Shown here one piece after another: positions 15,427 through 30,744 of a stretch of 64,000 nt of DNA. The stretch covers positions 1 through 64,000 of the forward strand of contig CANMJR010000006.1 of assembly GCA_947498025.1 (NCBI GenBank), read 5' to 3'. Made by a program: the position numbers and the translations under genes. Under the pieces are notes generated by a model. The model did not search any database. It was not told where the DNA came from and was given only the letters and a program-made list of their open reading frames with translations. The stretch's first letter is position 1. Each line of letters begins with the position of its first letter. The stretch comes from Helicobacteraceae bacterium (GTDB taxonomy: Bacteria > Campylobacterota > Campylobacteria > Campylobacterales > Sulfurimonadaceae).

Positions 15427-15458
15427 TGATTTTTGTCACACTTCTTATCTTTTTTATT

Positions 15459-15549
15459 AGACTTCTTGCATAACTAGGGAAGTACGACTTTAGTCGTGCC
15501 TAATTTAGGTGAGGCTAAAGCCTCACATCCAAGGTTATGTAAGAAGTCT
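15459..15549. mobile_element. MITE-like palindromic element
   Basis: The 91-bp element has 16-bp terminal inverted repeats (agacttcttgcataac and its complement, one mismatch), TA on both sides, and two internal hairpins (cgactttagtcg and gtgaggctaaagcctcac). It has no coding capacity. The terminal repeat matches the right end of the IS at the left edge of the window, so it could be mobilised by that transposase. Confidence 0.7.
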
Positions 15550-15589
15550 ATTCTTACATCCACAACACATTTCACAAAACAACCCAATC

Positions 15590-15714
15590 AAAAAACAACT
15601 TTTTCTCTCCAAAAGTGAGTAAAAAAGAAACTCATCTCGTGATATTTTACATTTATAAGTTCTTTTAATATTTTCTTAATGGGGGGGGGGGGGGTAATAT
15701 AAACAATTATATTA
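15590..15714 (+). promoter_or_regulatory. duplicated promoter region with G14 tract
   Basis: This upstream region is nearly identical to 25085-25200 before the second large lipoprotein. It contains an uninterrupted run of 14 G (15681-15694), directly followed by taatataaac, a plausible -10, with AT-rich -35 candidates before the run. The start codon lies 38 bp downstream of the run. Length changes in the run would alter promoter spacing. The other copy has G6-A-G3 and should be stable. Confidence 0.75.
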
Positions 15715-15732
15715 TCATTAAAGGAAAACGCA

Positions 15733-18213
15733 ATGAGAAAATCTTTGTCTATATCGGCAATTTTATTTGCTCTATTTTTGAGTGGGTGTGGTGAAGGAGG
15801 TTCATCGGTTACAGGCTTACCGGCTGCGGCACCGGTTGCAGCAACAGAGCTAAAAAACGGTTATTTGATAGATGCAAACATAAGCGGTGTGGATTATGTT
15901 TGCGGCAGTGTCCGAGGGGTAACGACCTCAAGCGGACAATACGGTTGTCCTACAGGAAGCAGCATAGACTTTTATGTCGGTTCTATGCACATTGGTGCAA
16001 TTACGGCTATGGCAAGTGACGGCATTACTTACCCGCAAGATTTGTTAAACATAAGCAGAAGTAACTTCACAGATGTAAATCTTATAAAATTTGTAAGATT
16101 TATCCAATCTTTGGATGATGGATCTGCTACGGGAGTTTTAACGATTAATCAAGCGACAAAAGCAAAGTTTACTGCAACTCAATCTTTATCGGAGGTAAAT
16201 GATGCAGATATTGAAACTCTTTTGAGTAGTAACAGTATTGTATATGTAAATGCAACGGTAGCAATGAATCATCTTAAAACAAATATGTCGATTTATGTAG
16301 CAGAGGCAGAAGTAGCAACGCTTTCGGCGCAACAAGCAGCGGATGCAAAAACAATTGCGGATCCAAAAACAGCAGCAGACGAAAAGGCAGAGGCAGATGC
16401 GGCAGCGGTTCTGGCAGCACAACAAGCAGCGGATGCAAAAGCAATTGCGGATTCCAAAGCAGCGGCAGATGCAGCTGCTGCTATTCCAAGCGGTAATGCT
16501 AAAGTTGCAACAAATATAGCTCCAACAGTAAATGCAGGAGCAGACCAGAATGTCATTGCAGGTACAAATGTAACCTTAACTGCAACAGCAAGTGACAGTG
16601 ATGGAACCATTACTAATTATGAGTGGAAGGATGGAGCTACAACTTTATTTAATGTGCCTGTCTCAGACTATTCAGGAACGCAAACTATGACTTTAACACA
16701 AAGCAACATTCAAGATATGAAATATACTAGATTAGAGGTTAAAGGTGGAACTAAAGAATTAGGTGGCGCAATAGTTAATGATACAGCACTTTTCTCATCA
16801 GGTATTCATAATATAACTTTAACAGTTACAGACAACAAAGGAGCTACTGCTATAGATACGGTTGTAGTGACAGTTACTGCTACTGATACAGCTCCAATAG
16901 CAAATGCAGAAGCACAAGAAATTGCAGATGCTAAAGCAGCAGAAGATGCTGCAGCAGCTTCTGCTAATGTCAAAATTACTCCAGTTGGCACTGAGTTTCA
17001 AGTAAATAGTGAGATTGATAGCGCTCAACAGTATCCTCATATTTCAGCACTTAAGAACGGTGGATTTGTTATTGTATGGGAGAGTTGGGATAACAATGGA
17101 ACTGCAATCACAGATTCTGAGTTAAGTTATCTAGCAGCTCAAATCTATGATGCAAATGGTAGTAAGGTGGGCAGTGAATTTCAGGTAAATACAAATTCTG
17201 AAAGTTTCATAAGTCGTTCTTCTGTTACGACACTAAACAATGGTAATTTTGTTGTCACATGGCACATCTATGGCGTTGAAGTTTATGCTCAAATTTTCAC
17301 TGAAAATGGAGATAAGATAGGTGGAGAGTTTCAAGTAAATACCTATGAGTATAGCGATCAAGATCAACCAAGTGTAACAGCGCTTAGTAATGGTGGATTT
17401 GTCGTCTCATGGACGAGTCATGATAGTGATGATTTAAGTGTTACTGATACAAGTGGGTCTCATATAGCAGCACAAATATTTAATCCTTACGGTAATAAAG
17501 TAGGAAATGAGTTTCAAGTTAACAGTGAGGGGGAAGGTTATCAACAAAATGTTTCGATTACGGCTCTTGTAAATGGTGGATTTATTTCAATATGGGATAG
17601 TGCTCATGCACAAATTTATAATAATGATGGCAGTAAAATAGGTAGTGAATTTCAAATCGGTGGTCTTTTTTGTAGTATTGGAATTGGAGCATTGGAAAAT
17701 GGCGATTTTGTTGCGGCTTGGGTAGTTACTGAATCTGTCTCCGTTGTTGGTGAATATGGTTTTAGCTATTCATATGGTGCACCAGCAGTAATGGCACAAA
17801 TTTATGACAAGAATGGCAGTAAAATAGGCAGCGAGCTTCGAGTAAGCACTAAACTTGCTGGTGAAACAAGTTTGAAAATAAATACACCTGCTATCACAGC
17901 TTTAAGCGGTGGAGGATTTGTTATCACTTGGAAACAACTTGACGATACTTCTGTATCATATATTACAGGTAGCCCAATTACTAATATAGCTGCGCAAGTG
18001 TATGATGCCAATAGCAATAAAGTAGGCAGTAACTTTTTAATAAGTAGTGAAAATGAGTATGATCAATATTATCCATCTAGTGCAACTCTTGAGAATAATA
18101 GAATTGTGGTTACATGGCAAAGTGATGATACAAGAGGTGTGGGGATTACTGATACAAGAAATGCTCACATTGCAGCACAAATATTTGATATAAATATAAC
18201 AGCGGGTCAGTAG
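15733..18213 (+). CDS. large surface lipoprotein with PKD and seven propeller-like repeats
   Basis: The 826-residue lipoprotein has its lipobox at LFLSGC (Cys19). After an N-terminal domain with paired Cys (about 40-195) comes an Ala-rich coiled region with repeated QQAADAKAIAD. A PKD-like domain follows (about 255-385, APTVNAGADQNVIAG). Residues ~415-826 hold seven units of 45-66 residues, each with GxEFQVN, a QPSVTALSNGGFVVxW strand pair and AQIYDxNGxKVG. Such units occur in large adhesins, and seven copies suggest a beta-propeller. It likely acts at the cell surface in adhesion; the function is inferred. Expression may be phase-variable through the upstream G14 run. Confidence 0.8.
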   Translation: MRKSLSISAILFALFLSGCGEGGSSVTGLPAAAPVAATELKNGYLIDANISGVDYVCGSVRGVTTSSGQYGCPTGSSIDFYVGSMHIGAITAMASDGITYPQDLLNISRSNFTDVNLIKFVRFIQSLDDGSATGVLTINQATKAKFTATQSLSEVNDADIETLLSSNSIVYVNATVAMNHLKTNMSIYVAEAEVATLSAQQAADAKTIADPKTAADEKAEADAAAVLAAQQAADAKAIADSKAAADAAAAIPSGNAKVATNIAPTVNAGADQNVIAGTNVTLTATASDSDGTITNYEWKDGATTLFNVPVSDYSGTQTMTLTQSNIQDMKYTRLEVKGGTKELGGAIVNDTALFSSGIHNITLTVTDNKGATAIDTVVVTVTATDTAPIANAEAQEIADAKAAEDAAAASANVKITPVGTEFQVNSEIDSAQQYPHISALKNGGFVIVWESWDNNGTAITDSELSYLAAQIYDANGSKVGSEFQVNTNSESFISRSSVTTLNNGNFVVTWHIYGVEVYAQIFTENGDKIGGEFQVNTYEYSDQDQPSVTALSNGGFVVSWTSHDSDDLSVTDTSGSHIAAQIFNPYGNKVGNEFQVNSEGEGYQQNVSITALVNGGFISIWDSAHAQIYNNDGSKIGSEFQIGGLFCSIGIGALENGDFVAAWVVTESVSVVGEYGFSYSYGAPAVMAQIYDKNGSKIGSELRVSTKLAGETSLKINTPAITALSGGGFVITWKQLDDTSVSYITGSPITNIAAQVYDANSNKVGSNFLISSENEYDQYYPSSATLENNRIVVTWQSDDTRGVGITDTRNAHIAAQIFDINITAGQ

Positions 18214-25084: not shown

Positions 25085-25200
25085 TAAAAAACAACAATTT
25101 CTGCCAAAAGTGAGAAAAAAAGAAACTCATCTCGTGATATTTTACATTTATAAGTTCTTTTAATATTTTCTTAATGGGGGGAGGGTAATATAAACAATCA
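25085..25200 (+). promoter_or_regulatory. duplicated promoter region, interrupted G tract
   Basis: This is nearly base-for-base the same as 15590-15714, except that the G run is G6-A-G3 (25176-25185). It precedes the 1675-residue lipoprotein by about 40 bp. The interruption should suppress slippage, which would make this copy constitutive relative to its G14 paralogue. Confidence 0.7.
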
Positions 25201-25222: not shown

Positions 25223-28200
25223 ATGCAAAAATATTTTTATATGTCGGCAATTTTGTTTGCTCTGTTTTTTAGCGGATGCGGTGATGGCGGCTCGTCATCC
25301 ACTACGCCGGAGGCAGTTGTAAATACCCCACCAACACAAGCAGCGGATGGAGTGGTAACAGTTTCAGGAGTAGCACAGCTTGGCTATATCTCGGGCGGTG
25401 ATGTAAAGTTGTTTGAATTGTCAAACCTAAATACTCCTATAGCAACAACTAAAAGTGCAACTTCATCTGTTGAGAGTGAAGCAGGTCGTTTTAGTTTTGA
25501 GAAAGTTGCATTAGATGCTCAAAAATATTATTTATTACAAATATCGGGCGGAAAAGATATTGACCCGAATGACGATGGAGAGACTCTTCCTGATGAAGCG
25601 GTTGATATAAATGGCAGTGTTTATACATTAGCAAAAGGTGATGATTTACTTGATGGCAAAGTGAGAATCAATGTACTTTCAGATATTGCCTATCAAAAAC
25701 TCAAAGCATCACTTAGTACCCTAAAAAGTAGCGATATTGATGCAGCACTCGATGCAAATGCAAAAGAGTATCTTTATGATATTGATGGCGATGGGGAGAT
25801 CGGACATAAAGATATTTTAGCTTTTAACCCAATACTTCATACAAGCAAAACAAAACAATCCTACAAAGATATTTTAGACATTTATGTACCGAACCTTCAT
25901 TCTGGGGGGAGTGATGAAGCAAAACTTTCTTCACTCATGTATCTTGATACTCCAAAAATTGTCATAAAAAATGGAAATTTGCAAGAAGTTCCATTTACGC
26001 TTCAAATGACGGTTGAAAATATGCCGGCAGGTCTTGATATCGTATGGTCGATAAACGCAGAAGAAAATGCATCAATGAACATTCAAAACGATGAAACATA
26101 TGAGATAATTGCAAAACTTACACAAGGAAACAATGTTTTAAAAACGCTTACAAGCACTGTCGTGGCAACGAGTAAAACTACCCTTGCTACTATGGATGTC
26201 AACGCTACACAAGACAGCATTGTTTATGTGAGCGATGAAACAAATACATCTTTGAGTGGCATACAAGTTGTAGTACCAAAAAATGCTCTTGCTCAAAACA
26301 CGCAACTAAGTGTCAAAAAATCCTCTATGAACACTCTTCCTCAAACAGATGGTACAGCGATAAGCGATGTGCTAATTTTGGAACCGGCAGGACTTACTTT
26401 TGCAAAACCAGTTCAAGTGAGTATGCCTTATTATGGCGACGCAAATCTAATAGATCAAAATGTTCGCATCGCAAGATATAGCGAAAATGGTGTAGTTGAC
26501 TACATAACCCCACTTTCGGTGAATACTCAAACACATGAAATAGTCTTTGAAACCGAGCACTTTACGGCATTTCAGTTGCAGACTAACTGGATTGGGCAAG
26601 AAAAACCAAAAGCGAGTCAAACAGAGATAACAGCTATTGAAGCGTTGACAGGTTTAAAATACACAAACGTTGTTTGGGAAAAAATCTTAAACAAAAAAGT
26701 TGCAGACAAGGCGACAGTGTACGATCTTTACTTGGAGTACAGAAAGAACTCAGCAATTGTAGAGAAACTTAACTCACAAGATTATGTAAGTGCTTATAAA
26801 CTATTTCTCTCCAGTACTAAAGATGCCGAAGATACGAGTGTAACTTTAGAAAATATAGGTAAATTGTATGATTTTGCAATAGATACAAAACAAATGGTAG
26901 GCGATGTCAAAGATGGTCTAAATACCCTCTTTATAACAAAAAAATATTATGCACAAATAGCTTCAAATATAGGAATGGTGACAGATATGAACCCTATGTC
27001 GTTTGTCACGGACTACACTACTTATGTATTTAAACAGGGGTTAAAAGCCTTGAGTTTAGCAGATAATATTTCCAAGAATAACCAGTTGAATGCTTTTTTT
27101 CAAACAAGAAAAACTCAAAGCTTTAGTTTTATTTTAAGCAAGTTGAAAAAGAGCTATAATGAACAGGATATGATTGAAGTAGCTGATGGCGTGTATGCTT
27201 CAAATGGTCTATTTTCTCCAACCCTATACACAGACGGCGTACTAAAATACCAAGATTTAGAAGCTTTTTGGTATAGTGCAAACTTGATGTACGAAATGGC
27301 AGAAAATTTCAAAACTCAAACCGATTTTAATTATGCTTCTTATAATGCAGAACATGTAGGAACTTTAAAAAATATCATAGAGGAACATAAAAAATTAGTC
27401 GATAACGGCGGAGAATATATTGATATTACTTACTTTTATGTAGGAAATCCCAACTCAATAACAGTCGGTGATACGGTTTCGCTTGATGTCTCGTGTGAAG
27501 TGGATGCATCAAGTGCCTATGCACTTGAGTTTAAGGTTTATGAACCATCAGCTGCTTATGCTGATAAACAGCTAAGCGGAGTAAGTATCACAAAAACAAG
27601 CGCGGGTCATTATAGACTTACCTTTAACACATCCAACGCAGGAAGATATTACTACTATGTGAATGCAACTGCGAAATTGAGTGCTAAAGCATTGTCGGAT
27701 TCTCAAAACAGTCTGCAAGACTCTTTTCTTGTAAATGAAAAAACAGTTAATGAACCCCAAAAAGCTAATACAGCTCCAATAGCATACGCAGGTACAAATA
27801 AAAATGTTCAGACAAATTCGCTAGTAAAATTAAGTAGTGCATTGGGTTATGATACAGAAAGTAATGCTTTGTCTTATGGTTGGAGTATGATTAAGCCAAG
27901 TGGTAGCAAAGCCATATTCTCAAACACATCTGTAGCACAGCCCTCTTTTACTCCTGATGTAGCAGGAAAGTATATTCTTGCTTTGATAGTTTATGATGGA
28001 AAGTTAAAATCTAGTGCAAGTATGGTAACCGTGACGGCTACGGCTCCGGAAGTGGCAAATACGGCACCTAGCGCATCAGCACAAAATAAAACACTCAAAG
28101 AAAATAGTACAAACACTGCTATAACATTGAGTGCAAGTGATGCAGATGAAGACACACTGACTTACTCTCTCGTCGCACAACCAAGCCATGGAACACTAAG

Positions 28201-30250
28201 CGGTACTGCACCAAATCTCAAGTACACGCCAAGTAGTGGATACAGCGGAACAGATAGCTTTACATTTAAAGTGAATGACGGCAAAGTTGACTCAAATACT
28301 GCAATAGTATCTATTACAGTTGAAAGGCTTTTATACAAACAGATTGCATTTGTAAGTGAATCTGCTCCACTGGATAATAGTGTGGTGCAAAGAGGAAGCA
28401 CTTTTACAAAAAGTTGGACAGTAAAAAATAGTGGTAGCCTTGATTTGACAAATGTTCGTGTTGTGGCACTTAGTAGCTCATCAGCGTTAGTCTCAAGTAT
28501 AACTCAAAATATAAGCAGTTCTTTGGTAGAAAATGCACAAACAAGCTACATATTAACTATCGATGTGCCAAGTTCTGCTGCGGAGGGAACATACGAGGCT
28601 AGTTTCAAACTTGTAGACGGCAGCGGTGACTTGAAATATGCAGATGGCAATACCGCTATTTTTTACTATAAGTTTGTAGTAGAAAAGCCAAATGATTTCC
28701 AAGCGTTCGCATATCTTTCTGCAACCACTTATAAGACAAATGAAAGTGCCCTTTTAGGCATAGTCATCAATGACGGAAACGCTCCTTACACTGCTACTAT
28801 TAATTGGGGAGACGGAACAACAGAAACTAAGCAAATTGCAACAGCTTCAAATGCGATAAATACTTCACACTCTTATACAACAAAGGGAAAATATAGTGTT
28901 AGTGTAGGGGTGCTAGATGCAATGGGGCAAACAGCTAGTATTTCAAATGCAATTGAAATAATTGACACAGTATCTAGTATAACAAAATGGATTGTAACCG
29001 CATCTGATAAAATAGCAAATACAAATGCTCAAGATATTACCGTAAATAAGACATCGCAAGCAAATGGCTATCCTGCGTATGGAACATCATGGTTCCCACA
29101 AACCGTGAGTGCAGATTATTGGTTATCTTATAAGTTACCCGTACCTGAGGGTGTGTTAAAAATGAATAAAAAACTTCGTTTAACACTTGTCTCTACAGCA
29201 GGAAACCTCTCAGACCACAATCGTGAGTTAAAGTATTCTCTTTCGGATGGAAAAAGTTATGCATACAACATTATGAGTAATATCAATAATGGCAGTGGAT
29301 TTATTCGTATAAAAGATTTTCAAGGAACGGATACAAACTATGCAGTAGCATCTCTTACTGACAGTGCTGCGGGTGTGGCGGTAAATGCACGGGCTTATGC
29401 GATAGAGAGCCTTTATAATAGTAGCAATACTTCAAATTATGCAATATTGAGTGCTTATAAATATGAAAATTCAGCTTATTCACTCTTGTCTAGCTCTGCT
29501 AAATCGGTAGATGCATCTACTACGCTTAAAGAGCTAGCTATAAGTTTTAAAGGCAATGGAATTTCTTATCTTATTACATTAGAATACGATAAAGATGGCG
29601 ATGGAAGTTATAGTAGCACGGAAAAAATTATACTCAATACGGAGACTATGGAAGTTGACTGGAGTGTTTTTTTAGATACTACGCAAAACAACAGTAGCAC
29701 TGTCAAAAAAACAGGGCAAACCAAAAGCTACAACACGGATGGTATTGAAGTCACAGACGGTTCAGTTAAAGATGATGGTTACTACAAAAGCGGTGAAACA
29801 CCTCGCTACACGAGAGCATCAGACATGGTAAGTGATGAACTCACAGGGCTTATGTGGCAAGACGATGCAGCAGCAGCTTCGACAAGCAGACCGTGGCTGA
29901 CAAGCGATAATTATATCACATGTGCAAATGACACTTCATCTGCTACATGTAATGACACCGGCGGAGACACAGCAGCTTCGTACTGCTCGAATTTGGTGTT
30001 AGGAGGCTACACAGATTGGAGACTTCCTACATCTACGGAACTAGAAGGCATTATGGATTATGGAAAAGTTGTTCGGGCTATTGATACAACCTATTTTAAT
30101 AATGTTAGCCAATGGTATTACTGGAGTTCAACTATTTGTGAATATAATAATAAGCTCTATGCATGGATTGTGGACTTCCATGGTGGCGGTGTGTACGACA
30201 ACTCTAAGGGTAACCACAATTCTGTTCGTTGTGTCAGGGCAGGACAGTAA
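25223..30250 (+). CDS. giant modular surface lipoprotein with C-terminal DUF1566
   Basis: The 1675-residue lipoprotein has a lipobox at LFFSGC (Cys19), with a signal peptide almost the same as the 15733 protein. By eye the order is an N-terminal beta domain with a DIDGDGEIGHKDI calcium-loop motif (~195), a ZU5-like segment (~345-400), a helical middle, a PKD-like domain (~850-940), a cadherin-like domain (~950-1040, SYSLVAQPSHGTLSG), an NBR1/FW-like domain (~1045-1155), a second PKD-like domain (~1160-1250), and a DUF1566 domain (~1530-1675) ending VRCVRAGQ. DUF1566 occurs in fibrobacter-type surface proteins. Probably a cell-surface adhesion or substrate-binding protein. Confidence 0.82.
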   Translation: MQKYFYMSAILFALFFSGCGDGGSSSTTPEAVVNTPPTQAADGVVTVSGVAQLGYISGGDVKLFELSNLNTPIATTKSATSSVESEAGRFSFEKVALDAQKYYLLQISGGKDIDPNDDGETLPDEAVDINGSVYTLAKGDDLLDGKVRINVLSDIAYQKLKASLSTLKSSDIDAALDANAKEYLYDIDGDGEIGHKDILAFNPILHTSKTKQSYKDILDIYVPNLHSGGSDEAKLSSLMYLDTPKIVIKNGNLQEVPFTLQMTVENMPAGLDIVWSINAEENASMNIQNDETYEIIAKLTQGNNVLKTLTSTVVATSKTTLATMDVNATQDSIVYVSDETNTSLSGIQVVVPKNALAQNTQLSVKKSSMNTLPQTDGTAISDVLILEPAGLTFAKPVQVSMPYYGDANLIDQNVRIARYSENGVVDYITPLSVNTQTHEIVFETEHFTAFQLQTNWIGQEKPKASQTEITAIEALTGLKYTNVVWEKILNKKVADKATVYDLYLEYRKNSAIVEKLNSQDYVSAYKLFLSSTKDAEDTSVTLENIGKLYDFAIDTKQMVGDVKDGLNTLFITKKYYAQIASNIGMVTDMNPMSFVTDYTTYVFKQGLKALSLADNISKNNQLNAFFQTRKTQSFSFILSKLKKSYNEQDMIEVADGVYASNGLFSPTLYTDGVLKYQDLEAFWYSANLMYEMAENFKTQTDFNYASYNAEHVGTLKNIIEEHKKLVDNGGEYIDITYFYVGNPNSITVGDTVSLDVSCEVDASSAYALEFKVYEPSAAYADKQLSGVSITKTSAGHYRLTFNTSNAGRYYYYVNATAKLSAKALSDSQNSLQDSFLVNEKTVNEPQKANTAPIAYAGTNKNVQTNSLVKLSSALGYDTESNALSYGWSMIKPSGSKAIFSNTSVAQPSFTPDVAGKYILALIVYDGKLKSSASMVTVTATAPEVANTAPSASAQNKTLKENSTNTAITLSASDADEDTLTYSLVAQPSHGTLSGTAPNLKYTPSSGYSGTDSFTFKVNDGKVDSNTAIVSITVERLLYKQIAFVSESAPLDNSVVQRGSTFTKSWTVKNSGSLDLTNVRVVALSSSSALVSSITQNISSSLVENAQTSYILTIDVPSSAAEGTYEASFKLVDGSGDLKYADGNTAIFYYKFVVEKPNDFQAFAYLSATTYKTNESALLGIVINDGNAPYTATINWGDGTTETKQIATASNAINTSHSYTTKGKYSVSVGVLDAMGQTASISNAIEIIDTVSSITKWIVTASDKIANTNAQDITVNKTSQANGYPAYGTSWFPQTVSADYWLSYKLPVPEGVLKMNKKLRLTLVSTAGNLSDHNRELKYSLSDGKSYAYNIMSNINNGSGFIRIKDFQGTDTNYAVASLTDSAAGVAVNARAYAIESLYNSSNTSNYAILSAYKYENSAYSLLSSSAKSVDASTTLKELAISFKGNGISYLITLEYDKDGDGSYSSTEKIILNTETMEVDWSVFLDTTQNNSSTVKKTGQTKSYNTDGIEVTDGSVKDDGYYKSGETPRYTRASDMVSDELTGLMWQDDAAAASTSRPWLTSDNYITCANDTSSATCNDTGGDTAASYCSNLVLGGYTDWRLPTSTELEGIMDYGKVVRAIDTTYFNNVSQWYYWSSTICEYNNKLYAWIVDFHGGGVYDNSKGNHNSVRCVRAGQ

Positions 30251-30318: not shown

Positions 30319-30744
30319 ATGAGAAAAATCCTTTTGATTATGATAGGCTTGAGTGTTGGTCTGATGGCTGATTTCGTGAGAGATGCAAATACAGGCATAG
30401 TAACGGACAATACAACAGGTTTGCAATGGCAAGATGACGCTATAGGGGCTAGTATGGCATGGCAAAGTGCGATAGATACATGTGAGAATCTCACACTAGG
30501 CGGAGAGAGTGATTGGCGACTACCAAACATAAATGAGCTAAAAACCATAATAGACAGAAGCAGAGTAAAACCGGCTATTGCGATTGCATTTACACAAACT
30601 AGCTCGAGCGATTATTGGAGTTCGACTACCATTGCGTATTATAATGACAGTGTGTGGCTTGTCTTTTTCGACTTTGGCTTTATGGGTGGCAGTGCCAAGG
30701 CTAATGACTACTATTATGTCCGTTGTGTCAGAGCAGGACAGTAG
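30319..30744 (+). CDS. secreted DUF1566-domain protein
   Basis: The 141-residue exported protein has a signal peptide (MRKILLIMIGLSVGLMA) and is then almost entirely one DUF1566/Lcl-type domain: TGLQWQDD, WRLPNINELKTI, DYWSSTT and VRCVRAGQ. It is the same domain as at the C-terminus of the preceding giant lipoprotein and the remnant at 18250. The ribosome site is agtaggagtg. Domain function is unknown; a surface or carbohydrate-related role is often assumed. The last ~40 bp and 3' flank are nearly identical among the three copies. Confidence 0.82.
   Translation: MRKILLIMIGLSVGLMADFVRDANTGIVTDNTTGLQWQDDAIGASMAWQSAIDTCENLTLGGESDWRLPNINELKTIIDRSRVKPAIAIAFTQTSSSDYWSSTTIAYYNDSVWLVFFDFGFMGGSAKANDYYYVRCVRAGQ

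What the first reader, a model, noticed from the sequence alone, without database searches (positions are those of the whole stretch)
15681..15694. Uninterrupted G14 tract in the promoter of a surface lipoprotein: likely phase-variation switch
Seen: 14 consecutive G directly before a -10-like taatataa, 38 bp upstream of the start codon. The paralogous promoter at 25176-25185 has the same context but G6-A-G3. Established: poly-G tracts of about 7 or more in Campylobacter and Helicobacter slip and switch surface genes. Inference: length change alters promoter spacing, giving on/off or graded expression of the 826-residue lipoprotein.
Basis: partly seen in the sequence, partly recalled or inferred. 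Interest (0 to 1): 0.75.

Follow-up and report, generated by a model that had tools for sequence, protein, structure and literature searches.

The report
Slippery G14 repeat in lipoprotein promoter
A run of 14 Gs sits in the control region of a surface-lipoprotein gene in a probably free-living relative of Campylobacter; it is real and far beyond chance, and it most likely lets the cell vary that gene's output by slipping in length, a known kind of switch in pathogens that was thought to be missing from such environmental species.

Summary
In detail: 14 uninterrupted Gs at 15681-15694, 38 bp before the ATG of an 826-aa lipoprotein. The paralogous promoter has G6AG3 inside a block that is otherwise 71/72 identical upstream and 13/13 downstream. 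Sequence models expect 0.0001-0.0009 such tracts in the 2.93 Mb genome. It is the second longest of 76 measured G10+ tracts from the genus.

The phase-variation reading is plausible but only partly supported. For it: the tract is the hot spot of change in a near-identical duplicated promoter; a G11 tract 54 kb away on the same contig splits a 7TMR-DISM sensor kinase that is intact in the closest relative; and G8-10 runs next to TATAAT recur in other promoters of the genus, mostly before chemosensory genes, with lengths that differ between orthologs. Against or open: no length variation could be observed within the species. The "-10/-35 spacing" step is unproven: this genome shows no -35 signal, and two -10 candidates lie upstream of the tract, which would put it in the mRNA leader (the H. 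pylori tlpB/RepG type). The element is absent from the other 134 genus genomes searched.

Verdict: new member of a known kind (poly-G promoter contingency locus), in a lineage whose relative Sulfurimonas denitrificans was reported to lack such tracts.

The parts
15681..15694 (+). G14 tract (putative slippage-prone regulatory repeat)
   Evidence: chance expectation
15695..15703 (+). TAATATAAA, -10-like sequence abutting the tract (TATAAA at 15698-15703); preferred -10 under the spacer model
   Evidence: sequence; same arrangement as genus G8-9/TATAAT promoters; conserved in paralog
15609..15680 (+). 72-bp upstream block, 71/72 identical to the paralog promoter; AT-rich, likely upstream promoter/activator region
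15646..15674 (+). Alternative promoter TTTACA-N17-TATTTT wholly upstream of the tract; would place the tract at the start of the mRNA
   Evidence: 9 of 12 consensus; 2 such sites found in the region against 1.2 in shuffles
15654..15659 (+). TATAAG, best -10 candidate by a model trained on 173 upstream regions of this genome; would place the tract in the leader
15720..15725 (+). AAAGGA, likely Shine-Dalgarno sequence
   Evidence: sequence
15733..18213 (+). 826-aa lipoprotein (LSGC lipobox, PKD domain, four or five C-terminal GSEFQVN-type repeats), the gene downstream of the tract
25104..25175 (+). Paralogous copy of the upstream block
25176..25185 (+). Paralogous tract G6AG3, interrupted and 4 nt shorter
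25223..30250 (+). 1675-aa lipoprotein (Lcl_C, Ig-like, PKD and ZU5 domains) driven by the paralogous promoter

Best explanation
The G14 tract is a slippage-prone (contingency) repeat in the control region of a lipoprotein gene. Polymerase slippage during replication changes the number of Gs. Because the tract lies between an unusually conserved AT-rich upstream block and a -10-like TATAAA, a change in length alters the distance and helical phase between upstream contacts and the -10 and so tunes or switches transcription. Shown: the tract, its rarity, the near-identical duplicated promoter in which the tract is what differs most, and a second poly-G tract in this genome that has slipped out of frame. 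Inferred: that 15698-15703 is the -10, that the length varies within the population, and that length changes expression. Of the two ways length could act, graded control by spacing and phase (as for the sabA T-tract) is preferred over strict on/off.
For: Tract far beyond chance. Paralog promoters identical at 71/72 and 13/13 positions around a tract that differs by 4 nt plus one substitution. A G11 tract at C6:69541-69551 splits a 7TMR-DISM/HisKA_2 kinase; the 82%-identical ortholog in the closest relative (G155) has GGG there and one 625-codon open frame. G8-10 runs next to TATAAT recur in the genus: 20 tracts with TATAAT within 12 nt downstream, 12 of them within 2 nt (binomial P = 0.0004), against 10 reversed-control matches. 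Orthologous promoters differ in the tract: TerB-like G8 against G9; one MCP gene G8, G8, G10, G8 and none in five species. TTTAAG-N8-24-G5-TATAAT returns six sites, five with G8-9. In the TerB-like pair the distance from the upstream element to TATAAT is 15 nt in both, although the G run differs.
Against: No second genome of the species was available, so no length variation was seen at this tract. The promoter element occurs in none of the other 134 genus genomes searched, and no G run of 5 or more was seen upstream of the lipoprotein homologs whose starts could be placed. No -35 signal in this genome. Promoter candidates lie upstream of the tract. G-run lengths in the genome and genus fall off steadily instead of peaking at 9-10 as in Campylobacter (PMC6321876), so there is no Campylobacter-like phasome. 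The TTTAAG motif was derived from the same tracts, so the and 74 statistics are partly circular. Mismatch-repair genes were not searched for.
Confidence: 0.5

Rival explanations
1. The tract is transcribed: transcription starts upstream (TATAAG 15654 or TTTACA-N17-TATTTT), so the G repeat lies at the 5' end or in the leader of the mRNA. Its length then acts after or at initiation, by pairing with a C/U-rich small RNA, by structure, or by reiterative G initiation, as for the tlpB G-repeat and RepG in Helicobacter pylori.
For: Best genome-trained -10 and the only plus-strand consensus -35/-10 pair both lie upstream of the tract; the tlpB-hp0102 leader G-repeat acts in a length-dependent way through RepG (PMC8295292).
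Against: The genus promoters with the same layout have a full TATAAT directly after the G run; conservation between the paralogs stops just after TAATATAAACAAT, about where a start from TATAAA would fall. No sRNA was looked for apart from a local Rfam scan of 13-26 kb (none).
Confidence: 0.25
2. The tract is a functional but essentially fixed promoter element (a G-rich spacer or a protein-binding site), not a switch.
For: Lengths of 8-9 recur in chemosensory promoters of other species, and the spacer length is equal in the TerB-like pair despite different G runs.
Against: The tract is the most divergent part of the duplicated promoter; the MCP ortholog in G034 lacks it.
Confidence: 0.13
3. A neutral slippage by-product with no effect on expression, with the length drifting.
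For: Poly-G runs in the genus decline roughly geometrically; the element is species-restricted.
Against: G14 is far off that decline; the flanks are near-identical between paralogs whose coding parts have diverged.
Confidence: 0.1
4. Sequencing or assembly error in the tract length.
For: Draft assembly of 102 contigs; homopolymers are error-prone; a G13 in one related genome (L103) sits at a contig end.
Against: The tract is internal to a 101 kb contig with unique flanks, and the paralog shows a G-rich tract at the same place.
Confidence: 0.02

Closest known systems
Poly-G promoter tracts of Neisseria porA and Treponema pallidum tp0126 (between -35 and -10), and of tprE/G/J/L (upstream of the start site)
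   Same: Poly-G next to the -10 in the promoter of an outer-membrane gene; length controls output (PMC7864442)
   Different: No -35 defined here; no measured length variation or expression; different phylum or class and a probably free-living host
T-tract rheostat of Helicobacter pylori sabA
   Same: Homopolymer in the promoter of a surface protein in Campylobacterota, tuning RNA polymerase contact with upstream AT-rich elements by length (PMC4081817)
   Different: T-tract adjacent to the -35, not a G-tract adjacent to the -10
tlpB leader G-repeat with sRNA RepG in Helicobacter pylori
   Same: G-repeat of 6-16 upstream of a gene, graded effect (PMC8295292); other G-run promoters of this genus also precede chemoreceptor genes
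   Different: tlpB repeat is in the transcribed leader; here that is undecided and no RepG-like RNA is known
Campylobacter jejuni poly-G phasome
   Same: Same nucleotide and overlapping length range
   Different: There 77% of tracts lie inside genes and lengths peak at 9-10 (PMC6321876); here few tracts, no peak, and this one is in a promoter

Membership tests
Simple-sequence contingency locus (SSR phase variation) | Tract longer than the slippage threshold (about 7-8 G) and above chance | tested here: met
   G14; expectation 0.0001-0.0009 per genome; thresholds from PMC6321876
Simple-sequence contingency locus (SSR phase variation) | Tract length differs between copies or orthologs | tested here: inconclusive
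   Differs from the within-genome paralog (G14 v G6AG3); no ortholog found in 134 other genus genomes
Simple-sequence contingency locus (SSR phase variation) | Reversible length change within a clone | not testable with these tools
   needs reads or passaging
Simple-sequence contingency locus (SSR phase variation) | Length changes expression | not testable with these tools
   needs RNA or reporter data
Spacer-type poly-G promoter (porA/tp0126 type) | Tract between a -35 and a -10 element | tested here: inconclusive
   TATAAA directly downstream, but no -35 signal in this genome and the best -35/-10 pair is upstream
Leader G-repeat (tlpB/RepG type) | Tract lies in the transcribed leader | tested here: inconclusive
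   Promoter candidates exist on both sides of the tract
Leader G-repeat (tlpB/RepG type) | Cognate small RNA with a C/U-rich loop | not tested
   Only Rfam on window 13-26 kb, no hit
Translational (frameshift) phase variation | Tract inside the reading frame | tested here: not met
   Tract is upstream of the ATG; the in-frame upstream ATG at 15679 meets TAA at 15700-15702 (sequence)

The most novel reading that the evidence does not exclude
The genus uses a recurrent promoter layout, a G8-14 run directly in front of the -10, as a family of graded contingency switches for chemosensory (MCP, FIST) and lipoprotein genes, so that these bacteria diversify their sensors and surface by slippage, as pathogens do, even though a relative in the class, Sulfurimonas denitrificans, was reported to lack hypervariable G:C tracts.
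Probability: 0.25. Interest if true: 0.65.

Novelty: new member of a known kind. Interest (0 to 1): 0.45.

Why it matters
Hypervariable G:C tracts are described for all characterised Campylobacter and Helicobacter but were reported absent from Arcobacter butzleri, Sulfurimonas denitrificans and Wolinella succinogenes; that paper suggests a working mismatch repair as a possible reason (PMC2147049). A G14 promoter tract, a slipped G11 sensor-kinase gene and a set of G8-10 promoters before chemoreceptor genes in what looks like an environmental genus would extend contingency loci to sensing and surface genes of free-living relatives, and the claim can be tested with existing reads.

Tried and rejected
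Promoter element elsewhere: DNA searches of 59 and then 134 other genomes gave only 26-37 bp AT-rich hits; none of the six has a G tract and they look like chance matches, several inside coding DNA. Viral contigs and plasmids: no match. Genome-contig scan with the lipoprotein: one unrelated PKD match. Translational switching: rejected, in-frame stop between tract and ATG. Lipoprotein homologs: no G run of 5 or more in the 130 bp upstream of the roughly 12 homologs whose start could be placed; two have C5-6 runs at about -64. RNA structure: TAATATAA/TTATATTA after the tract can pair in this copy but is not kept in the paralog, so not pursued. Rfam: nothing in 13-26 kb. The organism's name was not established; Sulfurimonas is a guess from gene content and genus size.

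Full report
Observation. The tract is real: 14 G at 15681-15694, 38 bp before the ATG of an 826-aa lipoprotein. It is the only G or C run longer than 6 in the window. Markov models from this genome expect 0.0001-0.0009 such runs in 2.93 Mb. Five runs of 10 or more exist in the genome (14, 11, 10, 10, 10) where 0.12-0.40 are expected. In 135 genomes of the genus about 80 tracts of 10 or more were found; of 76 measured, 58 are G10 and 13 are G11, and only this one and a G16 reach 14.

Paralog. The promoter at 25104-25198 is a near copy: 71/72 bases before the tract and 13/13 after it are identical, while the leader and signal-peptide codons have diverged more and the remaining coding sequences do not align. 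Inside this block the tract itself differs by 4 nt and one substitution (G14 against G6AG3). This is what a hypermutable repeat in an otherwise constrained or recently copied promoter would look like. The interrupted copy should be more stable (inference from slippage principles).

Where the promoter is. A -10 model trained by EM on 173 upstream regions of this genome gives TATAAT-like sites with no TTGACA-like signal at any spacer and prefers TATAAG at 15654. A consensus scan finds TTTACA-N17-TATTTT at 15646-15674. Both lie before the tract and would make it part of the mRNA. The EM model is crude, as it was trained on all upstream regions and overfits flanking columns, so I treat the promoter position as open. 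Two comparative points favour the abutting -10. Other genus promoters place TATAAT directly after a G8-10 run, and paralog conservation ends just after TAATATAAACAAT.

Other poly-G tracts in the genome. At C6:69541-69551 (54 kb away, outside the window) a G11 tract separates a 7TMR-DISMED2 N-terminal part from a 7TM/HisKA_2/HATPase part in another frame. The 82%-identical ortholog in the nearest relative is a single 625-codon open frame with GGG at that point. So G-tract expansion with frame loss has happened here (assembly error aside). A G8 tract precedes TATAAT of a TerB-like gene (C2:11227; name from sequence resemblance, not tested by HMM), and its ortholog in G021 has G9 with the same overall spacing. 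A G10 tract precedes TATAAT of a small gene that looks like a cytochrome c, followed by a radical-SAM-like gene (C10:68075; judged from sequence, not tested by HMM).

Genus pattern. G8-N0-12-TATAAT gave 20 distinct tracts against 10 matches for the reversed control; 12 of 20 have a gap of 0-2 nt. Several precede FIST, MCP, Cache or NIT sensory genes, identified by Pfam, some with a TTTAAG element 21-22 nt before TATAAT. A search for TTTAAG-N8-24-GGGGG-TATAAT returned six sites, five of them with G8-9, although shorter runs should dominate by chance. This test is partly circular, since the motif came from the same tracts. One MCP gene carries G8, G8, G10, G8 and no tract in five species. In at least two of the 20 tracts the TATAAT overlaps a start codon and the G run is probably a ribosome-binding site (L136, L141). 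Poly-G at the Shine-Dalgarno position is a second recurring setting in the genus.

Mechanism. Shown: the tract, its rarity, its divergence between copies and a slipped relative in the same genome. Inferred from established slipped-strand mispairing: reversible length change. Inferred: effect on transcription through spacing or helical phase, as in porA, tp0126 and tprL (PMC7864442) and sabA (PMC4081817). The rival is a leader repeat of the tlpB/RepG type (PMC8295292).

Standing. This works like a poly-G promoter contingency locus; membership is not complete because length variation and effect on expression could not be tested. It runs against the published statement that Sulfurimonas denitrificans, Arcobacter butzleri and Wolinella succinogenes lack hypervariable G:C tracts (PMC2147049). 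The name of this organism is not known to me; Sulfurimonas is a guess, and so is a free-living way of life. A literature search for Sulfurimonas with phase variation found three papers, none of which appears from its title or abstract to describe such loci in Sulfurimonas.

Noticed in passing
Same genome, contig C6:69541-69551 (- strand), locus L113: G11 tract splits a 7TMR-DISM histidine kinase gene into two frames; the closest relative (G155) has an intact ortholog with only GGG at the site.
   Followed up: partly
L135, L137, L138, L142, L143, L144, L149, L150, L151, L155 (related genomes): G8-10 runs directly in front of TATAAT, mostly before MCP, FIST, Cache or NIT chemosensory genes; tract presence and length differ between orthologs. 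Possible genus-wide promoter class.
   Followed up: partly
L086, L087, L094, L108, L111 (related genomes): G10-G16 runs at the Shine-Dalgarno position a few bases before start codons; could vary translation. L111 has G16 before a gene that looks like a response regulator.
   Followed up: no
L034, L039 (own genome), L101, L106, L218 (related genomes): G9-10 runs at the edge of a dispersed element containing a TAGGGAC...GTCCCTGCC-type repeat.
   Followed up: no
window 15458-15550: 46-nt-arm imperfect inverted repeat (74% complementary, 1 nt loop) between the bacA-like gene and the G14 promoter; may be a terminator or a small mobile element.
   Followed up: no
window 25223-30250 and 30319-30744: Two neighbouring genes both encode an Lcl_C domain (end of the large lipoprotein, and a separate 141-aa protein).
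   Followed up: no
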